A DNA stretch of 64,000 bases from Darksidea phi (Eukaryota; Ascomycota; Dothideomycetes; Pleosporales; Lentitheciaceae): the NCBI GenBank assembly GCA_030770425.1, contig JASJFT010000033.1, forward strand, positions 62,001 to 126,000, read 5' to 3'. The notes beneath the pieces are model-generated. The model had not been told where the DNA came from, ran no database searches, and saw nothing but the letters and a program-made list of their open reading frames with translations. This document shows positions 1 through 14,771 of the stretch, piece by piece. The translations under genes and the position numbers were made by a program. The first letter of the stretch is position 1. Every line of letters starts with the position of its first letter.

Positions 1-3000
1 ATATTACTATTATATAGTAATAAGTATATTAAATAAGTATAGATAGCTTCTTATACTATTATTCTACCTTATAGAGCTCGCTTTATATAAAACCTAGCTT
101 TTAATATAGTATACTATAATATTCCGAAAAAATCCTAATTTAGTTAGCGGTCTTACTTAAGAAGCCTTTCTAAATATAGATACTAGATACTAGTATATCT
201 ACCTTTTCGATTATATATCTCTACTACTACGATAGATATAATAAAATAGATTATAATATATCTATTAGAAATACTTATTTAATAACTTAGAGCTATAAAA
301 TTTTACTTTTTTTTCCTAATCTTATTCCTATATTCTCTATTTAATATTATTAGCTATAACTCTAAAGAAATAGCTATAGCCTATATAATAGAATTTATTA
401 ATTACTATAATATTATTTATATTATATATTATTATAACTTCTACTTAAAACTAGTTAAAAGTCCCTTAAATTAACTAGAAGTTATACTAGCTATTAGTAC
501 TTTTATAAAGAATATAGAAGAACTTTATATATTTAAAGATTTATATAATTATATTATAGTTATAGTATTAAACTCTATAACTAGTATTATACTTTTAGAA
601 GATATTAATATTATTAAAGAAATTAAGAATACTTTAGAGAATAAAGAGAAGTTTATATAACTACTTTATATTAATAAGATATATTATAGCTATTATATAT
701 AAAAGATCTCTAAGCTATTTCTAACTAGTCTTTAAGCTTATAATATAGAAGTTTAGATATTTTCTAAAACTTTTCTAAAATAATTCTTAAGTATTTATAC
801 TAGATAAATACTTAATTCTAAGATTAAATTTAAAGACTAATACTAGATTAGTAACTTAAATAGTCTAGTACTCTTCTTATAGACTATTAGTAATACTATT
901 ATCTCTAAAGACTTATTTAAGATTACTTTTAAAGTAAAACTATATTTAGTACTTAAAGATCTAATATCTAAGATATATTAATAAATATCTAATAAGATTA
1001 TTTTAATATATTTTAGATCTCTTTTATAAGGTAAAAATAACGTCTTTACTTTTAATAAGGCTTTTAGTAATCTTTAGACTATTATTAGAGTAATAAACTT
1101 TAAAGATCTTTATAAGATACTTTATAAGAATATAAGTAATATTTTAATTCTATATAATTTTCTAATTTATCTATAGAACTATAACTATATTTTATAGTTA
1201 AAAGTATAATTTACTAAGTTATTAAGAGAGTAGTAGGACTAGTATTATAATCTTTTAAGTATATACGAAGCTAATAGTACTAATAAAGAGTAATATTAAT
1301 ATAATCTCTTTACTTCTAAGAAATTTCTATAACTAATAGATTATACTTTATAAGACTAACTTATATTCTTTATAACTAGTTATTTTTATTTAAAGTTAGA
1401 AGCTACTATATAAATTATAGACCTATACTCTATTTAACTAATTAAAATAACTAATATCTATATTTAAAAGACTATTACTATAGATAAGAAAGCTAGTATT
1501 AAAATCCTCGTATTCTTAATTAATATTTAATAAGATTAATAAGAGCTTATAGCTTTATTTACTTACTTCTTAACTATTAGTCGAGATATAATATAGCTAG
1601 TATTAAATACTACTAGTAATATTTAACTAATATTTAGTCCGACTATAATAAATATTCTAGTATTTTATACTATACTACTATATAGTATATAGTTAGTTAA
1701 TACTAACTATCTTTATAATAAGATTACTAAGCTTAGATATAACTATAGTCTAATCTTCTATAATATTATATTATTAGAGTATAAACTAGAATTATTTAAA
1801 GGTATAATTATCGGTCCTATAAATAATAAAACTAGTACTTCTCTCTTATTTTATCTAAGTATACTAGATACTATTCTATAAGATTTATTATATAACTTTA
1901 GCTCTTTTAATAATAGTTAATTATAATTCTTATATACCCTCTTTAGTATTTATAAAATAACTCTAGTTCTAAGCCTATATAGTATAATAATAATATCTAA
2001 GATAGCTTTTAACTATATTATTACTAATATTAAGTTTAATAAGATTATTAGTAATATTAAAATTTATTAATCTAATACTAGATATAAGTCTATCTCTATA
2101 GAGAGAGTAGACTTTATTCTCTTTTTTATAATCTTATAAGTAAATAATAAGTATCTCTTTATATATAATATATATAATATAGACTTACCTAGTAGTAAAC
2201 TTATATTAAATAGTTATTAAGCTACTTTAAAGGAGCTTTAAAAAGATTTTAATTATAAAAAAGTTACTTTTTATTATCTTAGAACTCTTAATAAGTCTAT
2301 AAATAAAATTAAGTATAAAGCTATTAAAATTAAGTTTTATTATAAAGCTTTCTTTAATTATATATAATATATCTATAATATTATCTAATAGAGAAAGTAT
2401 ATATATATAAAATCTAAATAGTAAAAGAATATATACGAGAATATTTAAGCTATTATAAAGTAATATAGTCCTATAGATTTTAATTTTATTCTAATTATTA
2501 TCTCTAGCGAGAACTTACTAGTCTCTATTTATAAAAAAACGACTATTTTAGAGTATATAACTAAGAATAATAAACTAAATAAGTTTTATAAAAGTACTCT
2601 AGACTTTATTAAGCTAAATTAATTAATATTAAATATAACTAATATTATTACTTACTACTTTTTTAATATAAATATATATAAAATTAGTACTAGTACTAGT
2701 AAAACCTCTAGAGATATCTTCGTAAAACTAGGTAGTATATACTTAAGTTATACTTATATAAATATTAATTTAAAATTCTTTAATAAGGTATAAGAGAATT
2801 TTAAAGTATATAAGAATTATATAATTTATAAAATACTTAATATTATAAAAGATCTATAGGAATAAGACTTTATCGAGGATATATATAATATAATTATAGC
2901 CGTTAACGTACTCTATATAATAACTAATCTTAAAACTATACTATATAATATCTATACCCTATTAAAGCTAGGTAGTTATCTCGTAATAATAAAGTTTATT

Positions 3001-3204
3001 AATAATAGTATTATATATCTTAGAGTTATTATTAGAGACCTACCTAGATAATAGATAGAAAGGGATAGCGGCCGTAGATAGTTACTAAATATCTTACTTA
3101 GCGAGTAGAACGACTTATTAATTCGTACTAGTTTTACTAGTATTAATACGTCTATCCCGGTTCTTAATCCGCTCGTTATACTAGCTACTATTATTACCTC
3201 TTAG
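1..3204 (+). pseudogene. RIP-degraded 5' part of a highly reducing polyketide synthase (KS/AT linker, AT, DH, C-MeT)
   Basis: This AT-saturated block reads, in the frame of the PKS exon that follows, as a ruined PKS. Seen: the AT motif GHSSGE survives as SYNSKE near 352-369, with the nucleophile Ser now Asn. The AYHSHHM motif becomes IYYSYYI at 679-699. The Pro-Trp-Asn-His linker is still traceable near 1170-1190. The SAM-binding motif of the methyltransferase is KISTSTSK at 2680-2703, where the family has ExGxGTGG. LLKLGSYLV at 2959-2985 stands for LLKPGGYLV, and the Gly-Trp-Trp of that domain is Arg-stop-stop at 3046-3054. Every change fits C-to-T on one strand or the other: Gln and Trp codons became stops, His became Tyr, Gly became Ser, Arg or Lys. 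The AT N-terminal GQGAQ motif was not found, so part may be deleted. KS would lie left of the window. The identification is by motif recognition and is strong for AT and MeT, weaker for DH. Confidence 0.85.
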
Positions 3205-6097
3205 GCTGTAGACAATAACATAATAATACTAAGGGACCCGATCTCCGTTCCTATAGGCGGGCTTCCCTCAAGAAGCTCCGAGCTGGTCCTCCTCGGTGGC
3301 AAGCAAACCAGAACCCGTGCCGTGGTCGACAAGCTGTCGATCGATCTCGAGAAACTATATAAGCGCGTCCTGCATGTGGAGAGTTGGCAAGACCTGGCAA
3401 TAACGCAAGTTGCTCAGAGCTGCAGCTTCCTCAATCTGGGGGATTTGGACGAGCCATTCTGGGCAGGTATCTCAGTTGAGCGATTCGAGAAGCTCAAGCA
3501 GATTCTCATGGCGTCCTCGAACATCATCTGGGTGACTTGGGGTGCTAACCGCGACAACACTGATGGCGCCCAGATGCTGGGCTTCTTCCGCTCGTTACGA
3601 TATGAACTGCCGGAAGCACAACTCCAGATTGTCGACGTCGAGACCGCCGACAAGGCCGATGCCGACTTCTTGAAAGAGAGGATGTTGCGTCTCGAAGTGA
3701 CTGCTGAGTGGAAGAGGAAGGGTACCTTTGATGGCAAGCTATGGACTACTGAACCTGAGATCAGAATCAGAGATAAGAATGTTCTTATCCCACGTGTCTT
3801 GCCTCAGGTAGCACAAAATGATCGATACAACTCGGCCAAGCGAGCGATCTTGAAAGAGGTTGAGTTACGCCAAACGAGAACGACACTCAACTGGTGGGAC
3901 ATCGAGCAAGAATACACCCTTCGCGAAGAAGAGACAGCCGAGCTTCCCGCGGTGCCCGGCAATCGCCGCGTGCGGGTCGACTCATCGCTGCTCCCCTCTG
4001 TTGCCACCTCTGTCGGAAGCCTCTTCTTCAGCCTTGGAACCGACATGGAGACTGGCGAGCGTGTACTCTCAGCGTCGACGACCAATGCCTCTCATGTCTC
4101 CGTCTCTCCCGCATGGAGTGTCCCGGTTGATGTTGGTCGCAGTATTGACGCTCAATACCTGTCCTTCCTGTCGGGCTACTTGTTGAGTCGGACCGCCCTG
4201 GCAGCAGTTCCCCGTGGGTCCAGCGTGGTAGTCCACGAGGCAGACCCAGGCTTAGCGTCGATGATGTCCCGTCAATTGGTGGAACATGGATGCGAAGTCT
4301 CGTTCACAACCTCTGATCCTCAAGTGAAGAAGCGCAACTGGATTTCGCTTCATCCTTTTGTTCAAACCCGCCAGATCCAATCTTCGCTCCCAAAGAACGC
4401 ATCTGTGTACTTTGATCTATCATCGGTTACCGCAGCCACATCCGGCGCCGACAGGTTGGGTGTCCGCATTGCTGCCAACTTACCAAGACGCTGTCAGAAA
4501 TATAAGGCATCGGTGCTCATCGGCCGAGAATCTAGTCTCTTGCCTGGCTCGCACGACATTGCCGTCCACGCCCTACTCCAAGATGCTAATGTGTTTGCCA
4601 CAGCGCAGACAAACGGCGTGCCCGACGGTATGCCTCTCCGCATGGTTCCACTCCGCCAGGTCGTCAGCAATATGGTGCCCATTGACTTGATGAGCATCGT
4701 GGAGTGGCATGGAGAGAACACCGCGCCCGTCCGGGTAGAGCCTATACACTGCAGACGTGACCTTTTCCGAAGCGACAAGACATATTGGCTTGTCGGTCTG
4801 GCCGGCGATCTTGGAAAGAGTATCTGTGACTTCATGGTTACACAAGGTGCCCGGCATGTTGTCCTTACCAGCCAAAATCCCAAAGTGGATGCTCGATGGA
4901 TTCAGGAATATAAGGCTAAAGACGTCGAGGTCACGTACCTTCGTGGTGATATCACCAATAAAACCGATCTAGAGCGCGTGCATGAGGAGATTAAGCAGAC
5001 CATGCCACCAATTGCTGGCGTCACGAATGGTGCTCTCGTCTTGCGCGACAAAGGCTTGATCAACATGGACCTTGAAACTTTCCATCTCAACACGAGGCCC
5101 AAGGTCGAAGGCACTACTTACCTGGACGAGATGTTCCCAGACAACTCGCTGGATTGGTTCATCGCCTTCTCTTCAATTTCGGCGACGGTAGGAAACATGG
5201 GACAGATGGCATACACAGCGGCCAATATGTTCATGAAGGCACTAATTCAACAATGTCGAGCTCGTGGTGTCGCAGGCTCCACCATCGACATTTCGCAGGT
5301 GTTCGGTGTTGGTTATATCGAGCGAGAAATGAAACTGCAGACATCACTCAGCCGCGAGCAGGCCACCCGACTGATGAATCGCTCGGGCACCCTGATCATG
5401 TCAGAGCCGGATCTCCATCAACTTTTCGCCGAAGCCATTGTCGCCGGTCGCCCAAATTCAGGCGCCAACCCAGAGATCATCACTGGAGTCAAGACCCTCA
5501 GCAGCTTAGAGTCGAAAGAAGCGCTATGGGCTGGTCATCCCCGATTCGGCCACTTCATCCAGGATGTGGGTGCTGCGAAGCTTCCAAGTGCTGCCAAGAC
5601 GGACGCAGTGCCGGTAAAGATGCAATTGGAGAAGTGCAGAGACGTGGAGGAAATGGCGACAGTATTGAGAAGTGAGTGTAAACCCCGCAACCTGCAATAA
5701 AAGAAACCATACTGACATAGGGCCGCACTTAGCCGCATTTATTGCCAAACTCAAGAGTAGCTTGATGATGAGCGATGAGAGCGTCAGTGAGACGACGCCG
5801 CTGGTCGATCTCGGCGTAGATTCACTCGTAGCCGTTGAAGTCCGAACATGGTTCGCTCAAGAAGTCGGCGCAGATGTTGCGGTGCTAAAGATCTTGGGTG
5901 GCCCGTCCGTCCAGGAGCTTGTGGATGATGTGATCTCGAAAGTTGGCCAGTCGTTGCAGGCCGAGGGCAACTCGACGCCGAGCTCTGGGTCTGATGCAGA
6001 GGGATCGAGCACGGGATCGTCAGAGGGTGAGGCGGCGTCGCAGACGTCGGTAGGGAGCGAGGATGAGGGCCAGAAGGAGCAGGTGTTAGCAGCTTAG
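3205..6097 (+). CDS. 3' part of PKS: inactive-ER region, ketoreductase and ACP (two exons, intron 5672-5720)
   Basis: Frame is open from 3205, just after a TAG that was a Gln codon, with no ATG near the front, so this is the surviving 3' end of a larger PKS and not a gene with its own start. It holds a structural region resembling the non-functional ER of PKS-NRPS-type enzymes, then a KR with NADPH motif GLAGDLG and catalytic Ser, Tyr and Asn (SSIS, then AYTAAN). Exon 2 gives an ACP with the phosphopantetheine Ser in GVDSLVAVE. The intron has GTGAGT, an ACTGAC branch-like sequence and CATAG, and splits an Arg codon. After the ACP comes an acidic Ser/Glu linker and a stop, as in PKS-NRPS proteins cut before the condensation domain. 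KR and ACP look competent, but without KS, AT, DH and MeT no polyketide could be made. Whether it is transcribed is unknown. Confidence 0.85.
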
Positions 6098-7197
6098 ATA
6101 GTTGGGTGGTGCTATACTGAATCAGGGATCTCTGCTGCCAAGCACGCGCCGGATCCGCCCAATCAACTTCAAGCTAGCAAGCTTCGTTCCTCAAGGTCCT
6201 TGATGAAAGCAAATTCATTCTTCTATTTGCGTCTTCCGCCTGTATCGTGTACACTTGGTGTAGGTAGGACCACATCACATGATCTGATTACTAATCAGAT
6301 CTATCTCGATCCGGGATCTCTTTTTAGCTCTTATATATCCTCTATATAGAATAACATATTAAACTTTTATACCTCTGTCTACTTATGTTTGGGTTACCTT
6401 AGGTTAAATGTCACGTGCTGCGCCGTTTTGGAAAGTTGATTGCTCTAATTCCTACATAAGCTAAGTATCTAGCTATATATACAGAGAGAGTCCCCAGCAC
6501 AGGCCACCTAGGGACCAGACTTGATCAAGCATTTCTCCATTTCCTCAGTATCACCGCGTTAACCGTTGCTTTTAGGGCCTCATCAAACGGAGTCCTGAAG
6601 CGCTCTGTTGTACAGACAGCCATGACATTAAATTATATAATATACCGTACGCCCTAGCCGCAGCGCGCTAGCTCTTATAAATGCCAGAATTGAGATCGCT
6701 GATAGCTAATTATATAGCTAGCTCACGGGCATCCATATTGAAAAGCGTTGTTGATAGATATCGCGTCTTTTCTGAGGGCGGCCTGTTTTTGGTGGGATCG
6801 TAAGCGAGCGTTGCGGGCCTGAACGCTTTGACGCTTGTCTCAGCCCGCGAAACGCCGGCGGAAATCCATCGCTCCCCCTCACGGCAACAATGCACCAACT
6901 TCAAAAGGCTACCGCCAACACCATAAAACACGGGTCGCCATCCCACCCGCCTGCATAGTCAAGTATCACATCGAAGCTACAGATGACATCTTTATATACC
7001 CTCCGCCGGGCCTGTCGCCCAGTGCACTCAAGGTGGTCGCAGGCAGCATGTGCTTGAGTCAACGTGCGCAAATGGAGTGGGTAGGCCAGCAATACAAAGT
7101 AATGCTCCGTCCCTCTCTCGCCTTCCATCGCTCTTTTTTCTTCCTGTCTCTCCCCGTCTCTTCATCAAATTCGAACATAACCCTAAATCTTCCAACA
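6098..7197. other. Intergenic, PKS 3' flank and MFS promoter
   Basis: No gene seen. A moderately AT-rich patch at about 6290-6480 contains TATA-like runs. Open frames here (for example 6835-7197) lack coding character and simply run into the MFS gene. The MFS start is taken at 7198 because an ATG there opens the recognisable acidic N-terminus. Confidence 0.6.
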
Positions 7198-9255
7198 ATG
7201 GACTTTACCGAGCAAAAGAGCAACATCGAGCTCAGCCGCGTCCCTAGCCCCGCACACTCATCTGCTACCGCCGTGCACGAGCCGGATACCATAGATGGCG
7301 TAGCAGTGAGCGCCACCGACGACGGCGACAAGCAGTATGAGTTCCTCACAGGCTTCCGCATGTGGAGTCTCATCATTGCCATCATGCTGAGTATGCTGTT
7401 GTTTGGCCTGGATATCAACATTGTCGCCACCGTTAGTGTGCTCTCATTCTTCCACGATACCGTGCTGCTACTAACAAAGGTACCATCAGGCCGTTCCCAC
7501 CATCTCCAATGCATTCCACAGTATCGAGGATATTGGCTGGTATGGCTCCGCCTTCCTCTTGGCCCTGTAAGTTCTGCCCAACTTCACGAAACACCTCTTC
7601 TCCGGCTTACGCATCCACGCAGCTGCGCTCTCCAGCCTCTTGCTGGCAGGCTATATACCTACTTTTCGCTCAAGGTATGGCGTACCTACCGCTACCCACC
7701 TCCTGGCGCCTCTCACAGATTTAGTACACCTTCGTTGCCTTCTTCCTCGTCTTCGAGCTGGGAAACTTGGTCGGCGCCCTCGCGCGATCAAGCAACCAGA
7801 TCATCGGTGGCAGGATCGTCTCGGGCATCGGAGCTTCTGGTCTGACCAATGGTGCGCTGGTCATCATCACAGCAACGTGTCCACCTAAGATGCGTCCCAT
7901 GGCATCTGCCGCCGGTATCTCTATGATAGCCATTGGCGGTATCGTTGGCCCACTTGTCTCTGGTGTCCTGGTTCAATATGTGGGGTGGCGGTGGTGTAAG
8001 ATCAAGCCGTCTTACACTCTATCCGGCGAAAAGCTGATCATCTCCACCAGGTTTCTGGGTGTTCTTGCCTCCAGGTGGTGTTACCATCATCATTATGTTG
8101 CTGCTGTACATCCCAGAGCAGACGACGAAGCTCCCGTTGCGAGAAATCCTTCCGCAGCTTCATAAAAAGCTCGATTTTGTAGGCTTTTGTCTGTTCGCAC
8201 CAGCTTGCATCATGTTCCTCATCGCCCTCAACTTTGGCGGGACAGCCTACGCTTGGAACTCGGCAACCGTTATTAGCCTTCTTTGTGGCTCCGCAGTTGC
8301 CACCGCCTTGTTCATCGGCTGGTCTATCTTCATGCAAGACAATGCTCTCATGCCGCCAAGTATGATGAAGCAAAGGGCCCTGTTGATCGGTTGCTGTATT
8401 TCGGCACTTCAAGGTGGCGCAACGATAATGATGGGTTATTATTTGCCCGAGTGGTTCCAGGCTATCAAAGGCGCCGATCCACAGACCTCGGGGATAGACA
8501 TGCTTCCAACAATGATCAGTCAGATCCTGGGCTCTGGCCTATCCGGTGGACTGAGTAAGCCGAAGACGCGGGACCTTGACTTGCCCCGTTCATAGCCGTG
8601 CTAACGACTTCCAGTCCGAAAACTGCACTACGTCCCTCCGTGGGCCATCGGTGGCAGCCTGCTGACCGTTATCGGGTCCGTGCTTATGACGACGTTCGAC
8701 TTGCATACAGCCAAGGGAAAGTGGATAGGATATCAGATTTTGGCGGGCTTTGGCCGGGGTGCCGCACTTAATATGGTAATTCCAACCAAGCAAACGAGCA
8801 TTAGATTTCTTCAGAGTTAACCTCCTCATAGCCTATCATCTCAGTTCAGGAAGAGATGTCCGGACACGAGATCGCTGTCGCTATAGGTGCTATAGCGCTC
8901 TTCCAGTATCTCGGTGGTTCTATCGCCATCACCACCGCTCAGACGGTGTTTCAAAACGAGCTTAGGCATACTCTTTCCAGGCATGCAACGGGTGTGGATG
9001 TGAAACCCATTCTTGACGCAGGGGCAACTGGATTTCGAGCTATCACACCTACCGACCAACTCACAAATATCCTGGTAGCGTACAATGAAGCCCTTGTCAA
9101 AGTCTTCGTCAGTAACGACGTCCCACTTTACAGGACCCCAACACATTGACTGACTGTTTCCACAGTTCATTCCCACGGCTACTGCTGGCCTTGCGCTGAT
9201 CCTGAGCTTTGGCTTCCCATGGACGAAGCTTGGCGTAGACGACAAGAAGACTTAA
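7198..9255 (+). CDS. MFS multidrug/toxin efflux transporter (DHA14 type), 8 exons
   Basis: Exons: 7198-7431, 7490-7566, 7623-7674, 7725-7995, 8051-8554, 8615-8775, 8832-9107, 9166-9255. The frame closes to 554 aa. A cytosolic acidic N-terminus (about 60 residues) is followed by 14 hydrophobic segments. Family motifs are visible: LDINIVATAVPTI at the end of the first helix, then IGWYGSAFLLAL, and GRIVSGIGASGLTNGA in the motif C region. The family exports toxic small molecules by proton antiport at the plasma membrane, and such genes are common in fungal PKS clusters as self-protection. It lies about 1.1 kb downstream of the PKS on the same strand. No disabling change was seen, in contrast to its neighbours. 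All introns are 50-60 bp with GT-AG ends. Confidence 0.93.
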
Positions 9256-9604
9256 GATGAGGTGAGCGCGGACGAATTGTAACTGATTAAGATGATGACT
9301 TGACCTGGGCGAGTCACTAGGGGCATTGAGGTAGCCTCTCCTTGGTTACAGAATGCGGATGGTGTTCAGACGTTTGTTAGATTGCATCCTCAGCAGCGGG
9401 TAGGCCCATGGCGTGAGACGATGACTTTGCAAGACAACACGGCTTTTTGTATTATAGACTGACATAAAACATGTATGCGACGAACTAAAACCGGAGCATG
9501 ACGAAGTTCTTTGGGATCATGTGTTTCCTGTTGGTTTCTAGCTGCTGATCATTTACAGAGATTTCTTTTTGTTGTGACGCGTGAAAATTCGATGATCCAT
9601 CTCC
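9256..9604. other. Convergent 3' intergenic between MFS and methyltransferase genes
   Basis: Two genes end towards each other here. Nothing beyond probable 3' UTRs was recognised. Confidence 0.6.
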
Positions 9605-10585
9605 TCACTGCTTCCTACCAACTACTCTTGCCAAAGGTATCGTTGGCACGACACCCTCGTCAATCCGCTGAACATACTTGGCTAGCAAATCCTCGGCCAA
9701 CGCCCTCGTCTCTTCTGGACCCCGCCCCGACCCGTCTTTCAGCAATGCATAATACAAGCCAGCTTTCCAACCAGCTTTGGTCCACTCGCGTGCCTCAGAT
9801 GCCATGTCCTCGCGTGAGCTGGAATTGTAGTCCACCACCCTAACATCCTCGAACCCGAGCGCATTTAGATACTGGCTGATGTCGGCACAAGGTGTGTTGG
9901 TGAGACCGTTGGCCTGAGCATACTTTTGCATAATGGCCCGGACCTGCGTAGTGATATCTGAAGGTGGATTGAAAGTCATGTTCTTCGTTTCAAACTCCTC
10001 CCATTGTATATAGCCACCCGGTTTCAGGAGAGCTGCTGCGTTCGTGACAGCGGCCTCGAATTGATCCTTGCGGAGCGCCAGGACGAGGAGGCGGATGTGG
10101 ACCAGGTCGTAGCGACTGTGAAACTCGACTGGGAACGGTTGGAGAATGTCGTGCTCATGGAAAGCCATGCCCGGCTTCTGGGAACGAGGGAAGTGTTCGG
10201 CGGATATGTCGAAACCGGTATATTCCCGCACTGCGGGAGAAGAACCGGAGAGTGTACCGGCTACATCTTCAAGCCAAATGCTGGCGCGGAAGTCAGACGG
10301 ACCGTCGTCAACAATCTCCCCGGCCTTGATATTGACTCACCCAGTACCGGTTGCGACGTCAGCGATGTTCAGCAGCTTGGTTTGAGAGATCTGGGAATCA
10401 AGCAAGTTGTCACGGCATAATCGCCTCAACATATCATGCTGCTCGTTCAGTCTGAGAAACCATCGTCAATGCCAAACCCGTACGTAAAGGGTAGCTAACA
10501 CATACCGTTGCCTTTCAACGTCATCTCTCTTGAAGAGATAGATTTCCTCTCTCTCAGTCATGGTCTCAGCCATGGTGTCGATCAT
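9605..10585 (-). CDS. Class I SAM-dependent methyltransferase of the PKS cluster, 3 exons
   Basis: Exons on the complement: 10585-10506, 10451-10341, 10280-9605, giving 288 aa. The SAM motif I is split by the second intron (VATGTGIW), as is usual for LaeA-like and cluster methyltransferases. Motif II region follows with GFDIS, then LLKPGGYIQWEEF as the post-I/III segment. The family transfers a methyl group from SAM to O, N or C of small molecules. Placement between an exporter and a P450, next to a PKS, suggests a tailoring O- or N-methyltransferase, but the substrate is not evident. It may instead act in regulation, like LaeA. The start at 10585 is the first ATG, and a second in-frame ATG is four codons later. 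Transcription is divergent from the P450, so 10586-11094 would serve both. No defects seen. Confidence 0.88.
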
Positions 10586-11094
10586 GGTCTAGCCTGCGAT
10601 AATTCACTACTGCAGTAGGTACTTCAAACCCTACTGCTACCTGTTGTTGGTGGGGGAGGCCAACGTAACCCATCATGTTCATCCGGTGGATAGAACGACG
10701 AAACGTTCGGAGCATTTAGAAGTGCACCAAAATCCTCCGAGATGTCGGTGGATACTGTTGGGGGACGAAGTTTAAGGTTGGATCGGTAGAAGGATCCTAT
10801 TGGGCCTGACTTCGCCTTGCCTTCGCCACCAGGATCTAAACTCTCCGTTTCGTCAGGCCGGCGGGTTTGTATGACTCATGAGCTCTCAGTGCGAGCCTAT
10901 GTCGAACGCGTCAGCGTGTGGAGGTGGGTTCCCGGCAGATTTTCCGCTTCATTCTTCCGCCCTCTCGAACGAAGGCCAAGTGGAGAGAGGCAGGAGTCGC
11001 TCATTAACAGCCTTCTTGTGTAAGCACTCTATGCCCACTTTCCACATGCAGCCCATTTGGATTTAGAAATTCGTTCGGAATACACTCCACAGTC
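10586..11094. promoter_or_regulatory. Shared promoter region between methyltransferase and P450
   Basis: 509 bp between two divergent start codons. GC-rich patches and several CGG/CCG triplets occur (for example GGCCGGCGGG near 10856-10866), which Zn2Cys6 regulators often bind, but no repeated operator could be defined by eye. Confidence 0.45.
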
Positions 11095-12937
11095 ATGTTG
11101 TGGGTTGAACTGCCGCAGGTCACTACGGCACACAACATTGCCATTCTGGTGGTAGTCTTCGTTGTCTATTGCTTTGGCCTCGTTGTTTATCGCCTGTTTT
11201 TGTGCTCATTGGCAAAATTTCCCGGGCCCAAAATCGCGGCTTCAACTTTCAGGTACGGGGCGATCGAGACTATTAGTACACAGCATAGACTGACAACGTC
11301 ATCAGTTACCAATTCTGGCACGATGTTGTGTGTCGAGGGCAATACATCTGGGTTGTCCAGTCAATTCACGCCAAGTACGGTCCCATAGTCCATATCAATC
11401 CTTACGAAATCCACATCAGCGATCCTTCGTTTTATGACACGCTGTACGCTTCTGGAGGAGTTCAGAGGAAGAAGAATAAGTGGGCATGGGATACGGTGAG
11501 CATGAGAAAGCCACAGGTTCACTTTGTGCCCTTACTGACGAGCTCTATTCTCCGATATAGGTAGGAGCAGCCGGAGTTGCTGATTCAACGCTATCGACAA
11601 TCGACCATGACCTCCATAGAGTGCGGCATTCGGCCATTGCGCCTTTCTTCTCTTCTCAGAACGTGCGGAAACTTGAGCTCGTTATACAGGCAAAAGTAGA
11701 CCTCTTGTTCCGTAGGCTCGCTGCCTTCAAGGGCGTGCTAGGCGATATAAACTTATCACACCCCTTTTCCGCTTTCACCAATTGTAGATCCTACCCTGAT
11801 GCCTACCTTGCTATAGCTTTGTGTATACATGGCATAGATGTCATAATGGAATACAGTTTTGCCAGATCCTTTCATCGTCTGGAGGCACCCGACTTTGACC
11901 CCAGCTACAAAAAAGCTAGTCATAAGAGTGTACTGATGGCACAAATCGCCAAACACCTACGCTTTTTGACGTGGATCGCTAAGGCACTGCTCTGCTTGCC
12001 GGAGTCGTTGGCTGAAAAGTTGGGACCAAATTTCCGCATGTTCTTGTTTGAGCGCAGGGTAGGTCTTTCCCCGTCCCCAGACTTCTGATAATATCCATAC
12101 CCCCTTCCAAATTAGCCCATGCGCTGATTTACCATAATTGCGTGCAGCAATTGTTTGGAGAAATCGAGGCCCTCAAACGAGAGTCGACCGCCACCGGCCC
12201 AGATTCCGCCCACGTAACTGTATTCCGGGAGCTGTTGGACAGTAAACTACCCAGTTCAGAGAAAGAGGTACAACGCTTGGCAGCTGATGCCCAGGTCCTT
12301 GTCAGTGCCCGGGAGCGAAATGACGGCCAGAGCACTGACGTTTGCAACGTATTCACTGTTGACTTTGCCAGATGTCCTTACTGCCCTCAAACTAGAATTG
12401 GAAGCCGCGATCCCCAGCACAGATCCTGCAGAAAGAATATCTCTCGCCCAGATTCAACATCTGCCGTACCTATCAGGCGTTATTAAGGAGAGTTTGAGGC
12501 TCTCTTACGGTGTAGTCGGCCGCTTAGCACGTGTCTGGCCGAAGGAGGATATGCAGTTTCGCGAATGGACCATACCTGCCGGAACAGCGGTCAGCATGAC
12601 ATCCTACGACGTTCATCACGATGAGTCGATCTTTTCGCACTCTTTCGACTTCAAGCCCGAGCGCTGGGTTGGTAATCCTGGGCTCGAAAGGTATTTGGTG
12701 TCCTTCGGCAAGGGCACCGGGCAGTGCCTAGGAATGAATTTGGCATATGCGGAAATGTATTTGACACTGGCGAGACTGTTTCGGTGGTTTGGCTCCGGTG
12801 CTGTTCGTTCTGGTGGAGACGTGGGTATGCTGGAGCTTTTTGAGACGGACGAAAGTGATATCAAGATGGTGGCGGAGGCCTTGGTGCCCTTTATGAAAAA
12901 GGGATCGACGGGCGTTAGAGCTGTCATTTCACCTTGA
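11095..12937 (+). pseudogene. Cytochrome P450 monooxygenase with a one-base frameshift, 5 exons
   Basis: Exons: 11095-11252, 11306-11495, 11561-11783, 11838-12058, 12148-12937. There is an N-terminal membrane anchor, then the proline-rich hinge FPGPK. The ExxR helix ESLR and the FKPERW motif are present. Within exon 5 the reading frame changes inside CCCGGG at 12308-12313. One extra base there is exactly what is needed to connect the upstream frame to the I-helix motif AG-S-E-x-T, and without it the gene closes at 526 aa, normal for the family. The heme loop reads FGKGTGQCLG, where the conserved Arg two residues before the Cys is Gly. Either the gene is decaying or one base is a sequencing error, and the Arg loss argues for decay. 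Its likely former role was oxidative tailoring of the polyketide. The fourth intron candidate (11784-11837) is 54 bp and stop-free. Confidence 0.82.
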
Positions 12938-13167
12938 TCATACGTGGTACACTAAGTTCTACGTTATCCCTGTAGCTTGGGCCTCGGTGACCGGAAGATT
13001 GGCAGACTGCAAGTTAGCACAGATTAGTGTAATACGACGTCCCGTTTACATATTCCAGCTGTCACTATGAGTCATGAACATCATGATAGATAAGAGATTA
13101 GGTAAAGCCGATTTTCCATACATCTTTCGTCACCGGTTTAGACGCCCTAGTCCATCTGGCAGCAAAT

Positions 13168-14681
13168 CTAAGAGTTGTTTCTAAGGATGTCCTTTACCTC
13201 TTGGATTGACGCTGTCAACTGCCTCTCGCGAGACTCAATGCCGTTCAGAATAGAGTCAAACATGACCGACATCGTTCGCACCGTCCCACCATCCTCGGCT
13301 CGGCCGAGGTCGTCCATCCTTCTCGCTCGAAGCGCATTCTGTCCCGACCGTGCATGGAACTCGTTCCGTGTATAGCTCATTGACGAGCCTACGGGTTCGT
13401 TATTTGGAGACGCGCAGAGCTGCACGACGGCTCGGAGACGCCCGATCATATCTTGGGTGACATGGAGGAGAAGAGAGATGTTCCTGATTGGCGATGTCCC
13501 CAGATTGAATTGGCCGATGTTAAGAATGGGAACATTGGTGAGCGATGAAGCAGACGCGGATGCAGTGGATGGAGTACTCAAGTTTCGGCGCACTGAAGAG
13601 GAGCCAGTGTCGCGGGCTGTCTGCTCGGCTTGGTCATAAAAAGACATCACCTGGACTTCGTAGATTTCGAGGAGGCAGACGTAACAGCTTAGCACGAGTA
13701 ATGATGTGGACTCATCACCGAGAACACACGAGTTGCCCCGAACGGCATCGCCACGAGCATTTGTGCGGCATCCGAATGGATGTCCGTACGCTGTCTCGTG
13801 GGTCGCTTGATGATGAAGCGCTTCAATGACAGCCACGAGGTCATCAGTCGCCATAAACGTGTCCTCTATAGTAGTCCGAGGCGACCTTGCATCGTCGAAA
13901 TCTCGCGCATCTCCGCCCTTGGACGAATTTGAGATCTTCTGCAGCGTCAATTGTAGGCCCAGCAGTCTTTGAAAAGGAGTGTTGTGTGTCGTAGAATTGG
14001 AGTTCAAGATCAGATTCTTGCCACTGTCCGTCACAGGCGTAGTAGGGGCCGTAAGGTTTGGGCCTGCCTGTGGGCGTCTCAATAACGGGCCACAATTTGC
14101 TTCCGTTTGCATTGGGACGTCCAAAGCGGTCATGCTGTGATTGCTTGAATGGGTGAGCTGTGAATCATTTGGCGTAGTGGACATTAAATCATCAAAGGTC
14201 ATGTCCGGATGCCACAGCGATTGAGGATGGCAGTCAAGTGTCTGGGGCGTGGCGATGAGATCTTGGAGAGGATCTGTGAAGTTGGATATGTCCAGGTCTA
14301 GTAGAGATAGTCAGCCGCCAAAGTTTGGGTTCTCTTGCAAACGGATATACTAGCCGTCATTCAAGGGAGCATTCGAATTTACGAAAGGTTGCTCAAGTGG
14401 TGATACCTCTCGGCTACTCTGCGGGCCTTCCCGTGGCACCGACTCCTGTCGACTAACTCCAGCCATCCGTTTCTGAGTCTGGTTTCAGAGCTACCGTCAA
14501 CATGTAGGGAAGCAGTACAAACCTTGGGTCTCCCCGGCCTCAGAGCTTCGCTAAAATGGCACTGGAATCCAGATCTTTCGCACCTGGTGAATGAATTGGA
14601 ACTAACCATTTTGTGGCAACGAGACTTCGTGTCATGGCACTTATCACAAGCATCTCTCTTCTTCATCCTAGAACTTCCCAT
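13168..14681 (-). CDS. Cluster-type Zn2Cys6 transcription factor (AflR-like layout), zinc finger lacks one Cys
   Basis: Exon 1 (14681-14523) encodes the N-terminal finger CDKCHDTKSRC, then CERSGFQC, followed by RPGRPK. The fourth Cys that should stand three residues before TRC-type Cys is Phe (SFTRC instead of CTRC). Intron 14522-14479 has GTTTGT and CCAG ends. Exon 2 starts at 14478 and exon 3 at 14297, running to the stop at 13168. The exon 2 donor is uncertain: the canonical GTATAT near 14350 breaks the frame, while GTAGCC at 14417 keeps it. The C-terminal part has the LLVLSCYVCLLEIYEV helix and IRNISLLLHVTQDMIGRL typical of regulators inside PKS clusters. It probably controlled this cluster. 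Loss of a zinc ligand would weaken or abolish DNA binding. Confidence 0.75.
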
Positions 14682-14771
14682 CAGTTGGTATGGTGTGGTA
14701 CGAATCCAAATTGACAGTCATTAAGTATTTATGGTAAGTAGAGCGGCATAGTCAATCACTGAATGGCTTAT
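14682..14771 (-). promoter_or_regulatory. Proximal promoter of the Zn2Cys6 regulator
   Basis: Short region upstream of the regulator start at 14681. No clear TATA box. It is followed immediately upstream by three 15-bp repeats. Confidence 0.4.

What the first reader, a model, noticed from the sequence alone, without database searches (positions are those of the whole stretch)
1..3204. The AT-rich block is the RIP-destroyed front half of the adjacent PKS gene
At first glance it looks like a transposon relic or random AT DNA. Reading it in the frame of the intact exon at 3205 reveals, in the right order and spacing, AT (SYNSKE for GHSSGE, then IYYSYYI), the AT/DH linker, DH and C-methyltransferase (KISTSTSK for ExGxGTGG; LLKLGSYLV for LLKPGGYLV; Gly-Trp-Trp now Arg-stop-stop). 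All changes fit C-to-T on either strand. A biosynthetic gene has been cut functionally in two by mutation, not by insertion.
Basis: partly seen in the sequence, partly recalled or inferred. Interest (0 to 1): 0.9.

Follow-up and report, generated by a model that had tools for sequence, protein, structure and literature searches.

The report
Transposon-cut polyketide gene with RIP-eroded flank
A fungal polyketide synthase gene stops abruptly at a transposon, and the fungus's anti-repeat mutation system apparently ran past the transposon and riddled the next 2.9 kb of the gene with C-to-T changes, leaving its tail intact.

Summary
Window 345-3204 is polyketide synthase (PKS) coding sequence in frame with the intact exon: AT from its catalytic GHSSGE motif, then DH and C-methyltransferase. 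It aligns without a gap over 953 codons to its closest homolog (1545-1550 bits; other frames and shuffles at most 27). At invariant codons, 303 of 306 are unchanged or explained by C-to-T on either strand alone. No CpA/TpG is left where about 425 are expected.

Bases 1 to about 344 are not PKS. They are the end of a repeat with at least 14 other copies; PKS similarity starts within about 3 bases of it. The ketoacyl-synthase and AT N-terminal half is not in the 62 kb upstream, and no orphan was recognised elsewhere. So "not by insertion" is not supported. The 2.86-kb stretch has no second copy found, so RIP probably spread from the repeat (RIP leakage). Unusual: CpA-saturated throughout, then normal within about 100 bp. 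Another copy of the repeat has about 0.8-1 kb of the same beside a P450-like gene.

The parts
1..344 (+). 3' end of a multi-copy, RIP-saturated element (184-bp tandem units, terminus ...CCTATATTCTCTATTTAA). This copy begins at about C257:59915, outside the window; another copy is about 16.7 kb by self-comparison. Class not determined. Right end placed to within about 3 bases
   Evidence: 14 other places match from base 1 to 326-370 at 87-93%; 184-bp unit; 10 of 10 other ends printed carry the terminal motif with at most one base different, followed by different flanks; length
345..3204 (+). PKS coding sequence destroyed by RIP-type mutation: AT from GHSSGE onward, DH, C-methyltransferase; 953 codons without indel against P0001, 58 stops; no second copy found
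352..369 (+). AT catalytic motif GHSSGE of homologs, now SYNSKE
1342..1371 (+). HxxxGxxxxP motif of P0001 (HALQGQLVFP), taken as DH, now YTLxDxLIFF (x = stop)
   Evidence: DH assignment of the motif is recalled
2680..2703 (+). cMT motif EIGAGTGG of P0001, now KISTSTSK
3000..3297 (+). right edge of the mutated zone: share of mutated G/C at fixed sites falls from 0.59 to 0.41, first surviving CpA/TpG at 3207, usual density from about 3297
3205..5671 (+). intact PKS exon: Rossmann-like (sdrA-type) region about 3328-3798 (just under its Pfam cut-off) and KR 4780-5295
   Evidence: splice donor read by eye
5672..5720 (+). inferred intron (GTGAGT...ACATAG)
   Evidence: read by eye; it joins the KR exon and the ACP exon in frame
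5721..6097 (+). intact ACP exon with a DSL site, ending in a stop
   Evidence: PP-binding E=3.6e-10 on 5723-6094; reading

Best explanation
A highly reducing PKS gene was truncated at its AT catalytic motif by a large transposon-like element, whose 3' end now sits at about 344. Because that element is multi-copy, it was targeted by RIP. The mutation process ran past the element's end into the adjoining unique PKS DNA for about 2.86 kb, removing every CpA on both strands, and stopped within about 100 bp. The gene beyond about 3297 was not visibly touched. Shown: the junction in this assembly, the in-frame PKS remnant, the mutation spectrum, no second copy found, no N-terminal half upstream, an intact tail. 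Inferred: the order (insertion or rearrangement, then RIP), spread as the cause, and loss or relocation of the KS half. The KR-ACP tail cannot work as a PKS alone; it probably looks intact because the event is recent.
For: Homology and frame. Spectrum at fixed bases of invariant codons: C>T 58 of 98, G>A 113 of 183, A kept 114 of 114, T kept 83 of 84; CpA 16 of 16 and TpG 17 of 17 mutated, CC only 3 of 20, GG 21 of 52. Junction. No second copy: six further hits of 54-114 bp only. N-terminal half not in C257:1-62344: best 26.8 bits, while the same ungapped scan scores the known block at 1058.5. Recency: the tail keeps 177 of 180 invariant residues; 12 homologs scored leave-one-out miss 0-10.6%; neighbouring element copies A and C differ by 231 transitions, 1 transversion and 26 gap columns. 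Second edge of the same element (C220): first CpA/TpG 819 bp beyond the end, dense from about 1.05 kb, in DNA found once, ahead of two P450-matching exon pieces.
Against: Leakage described in print is graded with distance (PMC2973834, passages); here CpA loss is complete for 2.86 kb with a sharp edge, which would also fit a former duplication ending near 3205. In all contexts together the loss is uneven (0.56, 0.74, 0.92, then 0.50-0.68 per 200 bp, 8-29 sites each), so a mild decline is not excluded. The KS half was not found, so no target-site duplication can be shown. Only 1 of 10 other element ends reached normal DNA within the 1.7-7.0 kb fetched, so the leakage length rests on two edges. 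The DNA search skips words that are very common in this genome, so a lost or unassembled copy is not excluded.
Confidence: 0.75

Rival explanations
1. The PKS stretch was once part of a duplicated segment, RIP acted on it directly, and the second copy was later lost or is missing from the assembly. The right edge near 3205 would be the end of the duplication.
For: Complete CpA loss and a sharp edge. The assembly is in 477 contigs, and RIP-rich DNA is the likeliest to be missing.
Against: No second copy found in 51 Mb: the six other hits are 54-114 bp. A second flank of the same element, also found only once, is saturated too, which would need a second coincidence.
Confidence: 0.15
2. Slow decay: ordinary deamination of methylated cytosine in heterochromatin next to a transposon, without meiotic RIP.
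For: The block is very AT-rich and non-CpA cytosines are partly lost too.
Against: CpA/TpG is 33 of 33 mutated while CC is 3 of 20. Few other changes accumulated: 3 of 306 codons need one, and element copies A and C show 1 transversion in about 2.3 kb.
Confidence: 0.06
3. One reading: a whole gene cut in two by mutation alone, with the complete front half in place.
For: The in-frame AT-DH-cMT remnant is real.
Against: A multi-copy element ends at about 344 and the KS half is not found upstream.
Confidence: 0.02
4. The junction near 344 is an assembly chimera.
For: Repeat-rich region; read coverage cannot be checked here.
Against: CpA/TpG is absent on both sides of the junction (one in C257:59893-62344, none in window 1-3206), as expected of neighbours mutated together. 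No orphan KS half was recognised elsewhere (a capped search).
Confidence: 0.02

Closest known systems
RIP leakage into single-copy genes, e.g. AvrLm6 of Leptosphaeria maculans (PMC2973834, passages seen)
   Same: RIP-type mutation and stop codons in single-copy sequence close to a RIP-mutated repeat
   Different: There it is proportional to proximity, and the paper cites at least 930 bp in N. crassa. Here CpA is lost completely for 2.86 kb with a sharp end, and the repeat also truncates the gene
Transposon 'fissuring' of genes with RIP leakage in Pyrenophora teres (PMC5915480, passages seen)
   Same: A transposon interrupts a gene, and leakage is proposed to speed decay of the fragments
   Different: Here one PKS is followed codon by codon, with a measured extent and edge
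Genome-wide RIP leakage in Cladosporium fulvum (PMC9453070, passages seen)
   Same: [quoted passage not shown] a similar criterion to the one used here
   Different: In the passages seen it is reported as totals per chromosome, not as a gene dissection
Highly reducing PKS; closest full-length relative with a named organism: Arthroderma uncinatum 2502-aa protein (P0011)
   Same: Collinear from residue 649 onward; tail 59% identical
   Different: Residues 1-648 missing here, 649 to about 1601 destroyed. Among solved structures the tail is closest to psoA and the lovastatin nonaketide synthase

Membership tests
Repeat-induced point mutation (RIP) | C-to-T on both strands with strong CpA preference | tested here: met
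   CpA 16 of 16, TpG 17 of 17, CC 3 of 20; C>T 58 of 98, G>A 113 of 183; A and T kept 197 of 198
[quoted passage not shown]
   345-3204 has no second copy found in the assembly; 1 to about 344 has. The PKS part is therefore filed as RIP leakage, not direct RIP
Repeat-induced point mutation (RIP) | RID/DIM-2-type methyltransferases and a sexual cycle | tested here: inconclusive
   DNA_methylase matches on C306, C429, C466 and C3, not assigned to RID or DIM-2; sexual cycle not testable
RIP leakage | single-copy DNA directly beside a RIP-mutated repeat | tested here: met
RIP leakage | mutation declines with distance from the repeat (described in L. maculans; not clearly a defining feature) | tested here: inconclusive
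   CpA/TpG loss is complete to 3206. All-context loss per 200-bp bin is 0.56, 0.74, 0.92, then 0.50-0.68, then 0.41 in 3000-3199: no clear gradient, a mild one not excluded
Highly reducing PKS gene | KS-AT-DH-cMT-(ER)-KR-ACP order | tested here: not met
   AT (from GHSSGE), DH and cMT as remnants, KR and ACP intact; KS not found. It is a remnant of such a gene
Known transposon class | class-specific proteins or termini | not tested
   No protein search of the element was made. Known only: shared 3' end, a shorter copy, no matching termini by eye, no Rfam match at gathering threshold in 50 kb

The most novel reading that the evidence does not exclude
In this fungus RIP does not merely leak but spreads as a domain from repeat ends into unique DNA: it removes every CpA for 1-3 kb at full strength and stops at a sharp boundary, so a transposon can erase a neighbouring single-copy gene portion in one piece.
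Probability: 0.35. Interest if true: 0.55.

Novelty: new member of a known kind. Interest (0 to 1): 0.42.

Why it matters
It is an unusually clear case of a biosynthetic gene lost through a transposon plus RIP acting on unique DNA. Intact homologs exist, so the process can be read codon by codon: complete CpA loss, no indel against the closest homolog, almost no other change, and a measurable edge. The length and plateau shape of the spread bear on whether it is guided by homology or by heterochromatin. In practice, AT-rich blocks beside truncated biosynthetic genes should not be written off as random DNA.

Tried and rejected
Plain Pfam on X-masked pieces was nearly uninformative, so a RIP-aware codon score against homologs was written. 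Its parameters (67% C-to-T, codon usage of the tail, BLOSUM62 mixture) were set once from the GC loss and not tuned; the same settings served the controls. Three homologs were scored. The invariant-column test used 13 proteins that I chose from 120 listed (178 found); several are partial, and a column needed at least 9 letters, all identical. The wrong-register controls used codons 130-1049, the real test 115-1067. The tail rows were mis-registered after an indel and are discarded; one search replaces them with 12 homologs (P0018 left out). One motif tried for DH (DHRI) is not in P0001. The element's class was not resolved: Rfam gave 0 matches at the gathering threshold on 50 kb, and no protein search of the element was made, because even true PKS domains were nearly invisible at this saturation. 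Intact KS half elsewhere: of 36 matches to P0011 (19 of 171 candidates scored), the contigs with N-terminal matches also carry later PKS parts, with at most 64% identity; none is an obvious orphan. Element flanks: 10 other ends were profiled and only 1 reached normal DNA; whether the other nine flanks are unique or repeated was not tested. For the C220 gene, 2 of 4 exon pieces match P450 (E=1.9e-5 each), one has only a chance-level match and one none; that its 5' part lies inside the mutated zone is a reading by eye.

Full report
WHERE. The window is contig C257:62001-126000 of a 51.35-Mb, 477-contig assembly. It is taken to be a filamentous fungus, an inference from intron-bearing genes and fungal PKS homologs; the species was not identified.

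COMPOSITION. Bases 1-3000 are 17-19% GC in 1-kb windows, against 48-55% from 3001 to 7000. No CpA or TpG occurs before 3207. At the density of the intact tail, 2860 bp should hold about 425. C257:1-62344 upstream is largely nested repeats with strong CpA/TpG depletion.

THE BLOCK IS PKS FROM ABOUT 345. The tail (3205-5697) has 178 relatives at E<=1e-30, 120 listed: the best is 77% identical (P0001, source 'jgi', organism not named), and the best full-length one with a named organism is 59% (P0011, Arthroderma uncinatum). I scored the block's codons against three of these with a matrix allowing C>T and G>A. Frame +1 gives 1549.6 (P0001), 1511.9 (P0005) and 1137.0 (P0011) bits; the P0001 path runs 953 codons without a gap; the other five frames give at most 21.8. 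200 codon shuffles reach at most 26.6 against 1544.9 ungapped. An independent search with P0011 finds C257:62343-67676 matching residues 649-2428 through 18 TAG, 40 TAA and no TGA. Ordinary Pfam profiles barely see any of it.

MUTATION TYPES. At 306 columns invariant in the chosen homologs, 130 codons still give the residue, 173 are reachable by C>T/G>A alone, and 3 need something else; with five wrong registers only 17-22% comply. At bases fixed by the code: C>T 58 of 98, G>A 113 of 183, A kept 114 of 114, T kept 83 of 84. By context: CpA 16 of 16, TpG 17 of 17, CC 3 of 20, GG 21 of 52. Stops align with Q, R or W of P0001 in 50 of 58 cases. This is the RIP signature on both strands.

BASES 1 TO ABOUT 344 ARE A REPEAT END. 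They match 14 other places at 87-93% (a lower bound) and contain 184-bp tandem units. Of 10 other ends printed, 10 carry the terminal motif TATTCTCTATTTAA with at most one base different, followed by different DNA. PKS similarity begins there: the alignments start at codon 343-345 (P0005, P0011) or 346 (P0001). Two bases of codon 343-345 are shared with the other repeat ends, so the joint is placed only to within about 3 bases. Upstream lie another copy (about 16.7-kb unit at C257:4268-21020) and two LTR retrotransposons sharing LTRs, inserted in a copy with an apparent CTTAT target duplication read by eye; these are less mutated and so probably later.

THE FRONT HALF IS NOT FOUND. An ungapped RIP-aware scan of C257:1-65204 with P0011 and P0014 residues 1-690 and P0005 residues 1-230 finds nothing above 26.8 bits except the block's own start (84.4, 84.7 and 28.9), while the control scores 1058.5. 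Genome-wide, 36 matches to P0011 include no obvious orphan KS half (19 of 171 candidates scored).

WHY SPREAD. No second copy of 345-3204 was found; the six other hits are 54-114 bp at 74-84%. The tool warns that words very common in this genome are skipped. At C220 the same repeat end is followed by 998 bp found only once, with the first CpA/TpG at 819 bp and dense occurrence from about 1.05 kb, ahead of exon pieces two of which match P450. Nine other ends keep 0-2 CpA/TpG per 250 bp to the limit of the fetched DNA, and their uniqueness was not tested. Published leakage seen here is graded or shorter: proportional to proximity in L. maculans, at least 930 bp cited for N. crassa (PMC2973834, passages). 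Searches are full-text term searches of an open-licence library. I saw their listings, and passages of eight papers. None of what I saw describes a saturated 2.9-kb case in a PKS; this is not proof that none is in print.

AGE. The tail keeps 177 of 180 invariant residues; 12 homologs scored leave-one-out miss 0 to 10.6%. Element copies A and C differ by 231 transitions, 1 transversion and 26 gap columns; the copy at C257:18670-21000 and copy C by 268 transitions, 5 transversions and 28 gap columns. Little but RIP-type change has happened since, so the intact tail needs no function.

VERDICT. A well-resolved case of PKS loss by transposon truncation plus, most likely, RIP leakage.

Noticed in passing
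C257:45614-59892 (upstream of the window; L009, L010): Two head-to-tail LTR retrotransposons sharing a 437-bp LTR, 94.5% alike, only partly RIP-mutated, nested in the older saturated repeat with an apparent CTTAT target duplication.
   Followed up: partly
G000 C302:4844-12107 and C309:4640-11885: Another pair of PKS-like stretches with many TAG/TAA stops, possibly a duplicated PKS hit by RIP directly; a useful contrast case.
   Followed up: no
window 6832-14717: Possible cluster neighbours: of 13 open stretches scanned, 3 matched Pfam: transporter families MFS_1 and TRI12 at 7725-8592 (two pieces) and a cytochrome P450 at 12218-12934; 10 matched nothing at the thresholds used.
   Followed up: partly
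L040:3763-6400 (C220): P450-like gene whose upstream or 5' part lies in a CpA-free zone beside the same repeat's 3' end.
   Followed up: partly
C257:21020/21021 and about 59914/59915: One repeat copy starts exactly where the preceding one ends, and a shorter copy follows directly on another's end; the element may prefer to insert at its own 3' end.
   Followed up: no
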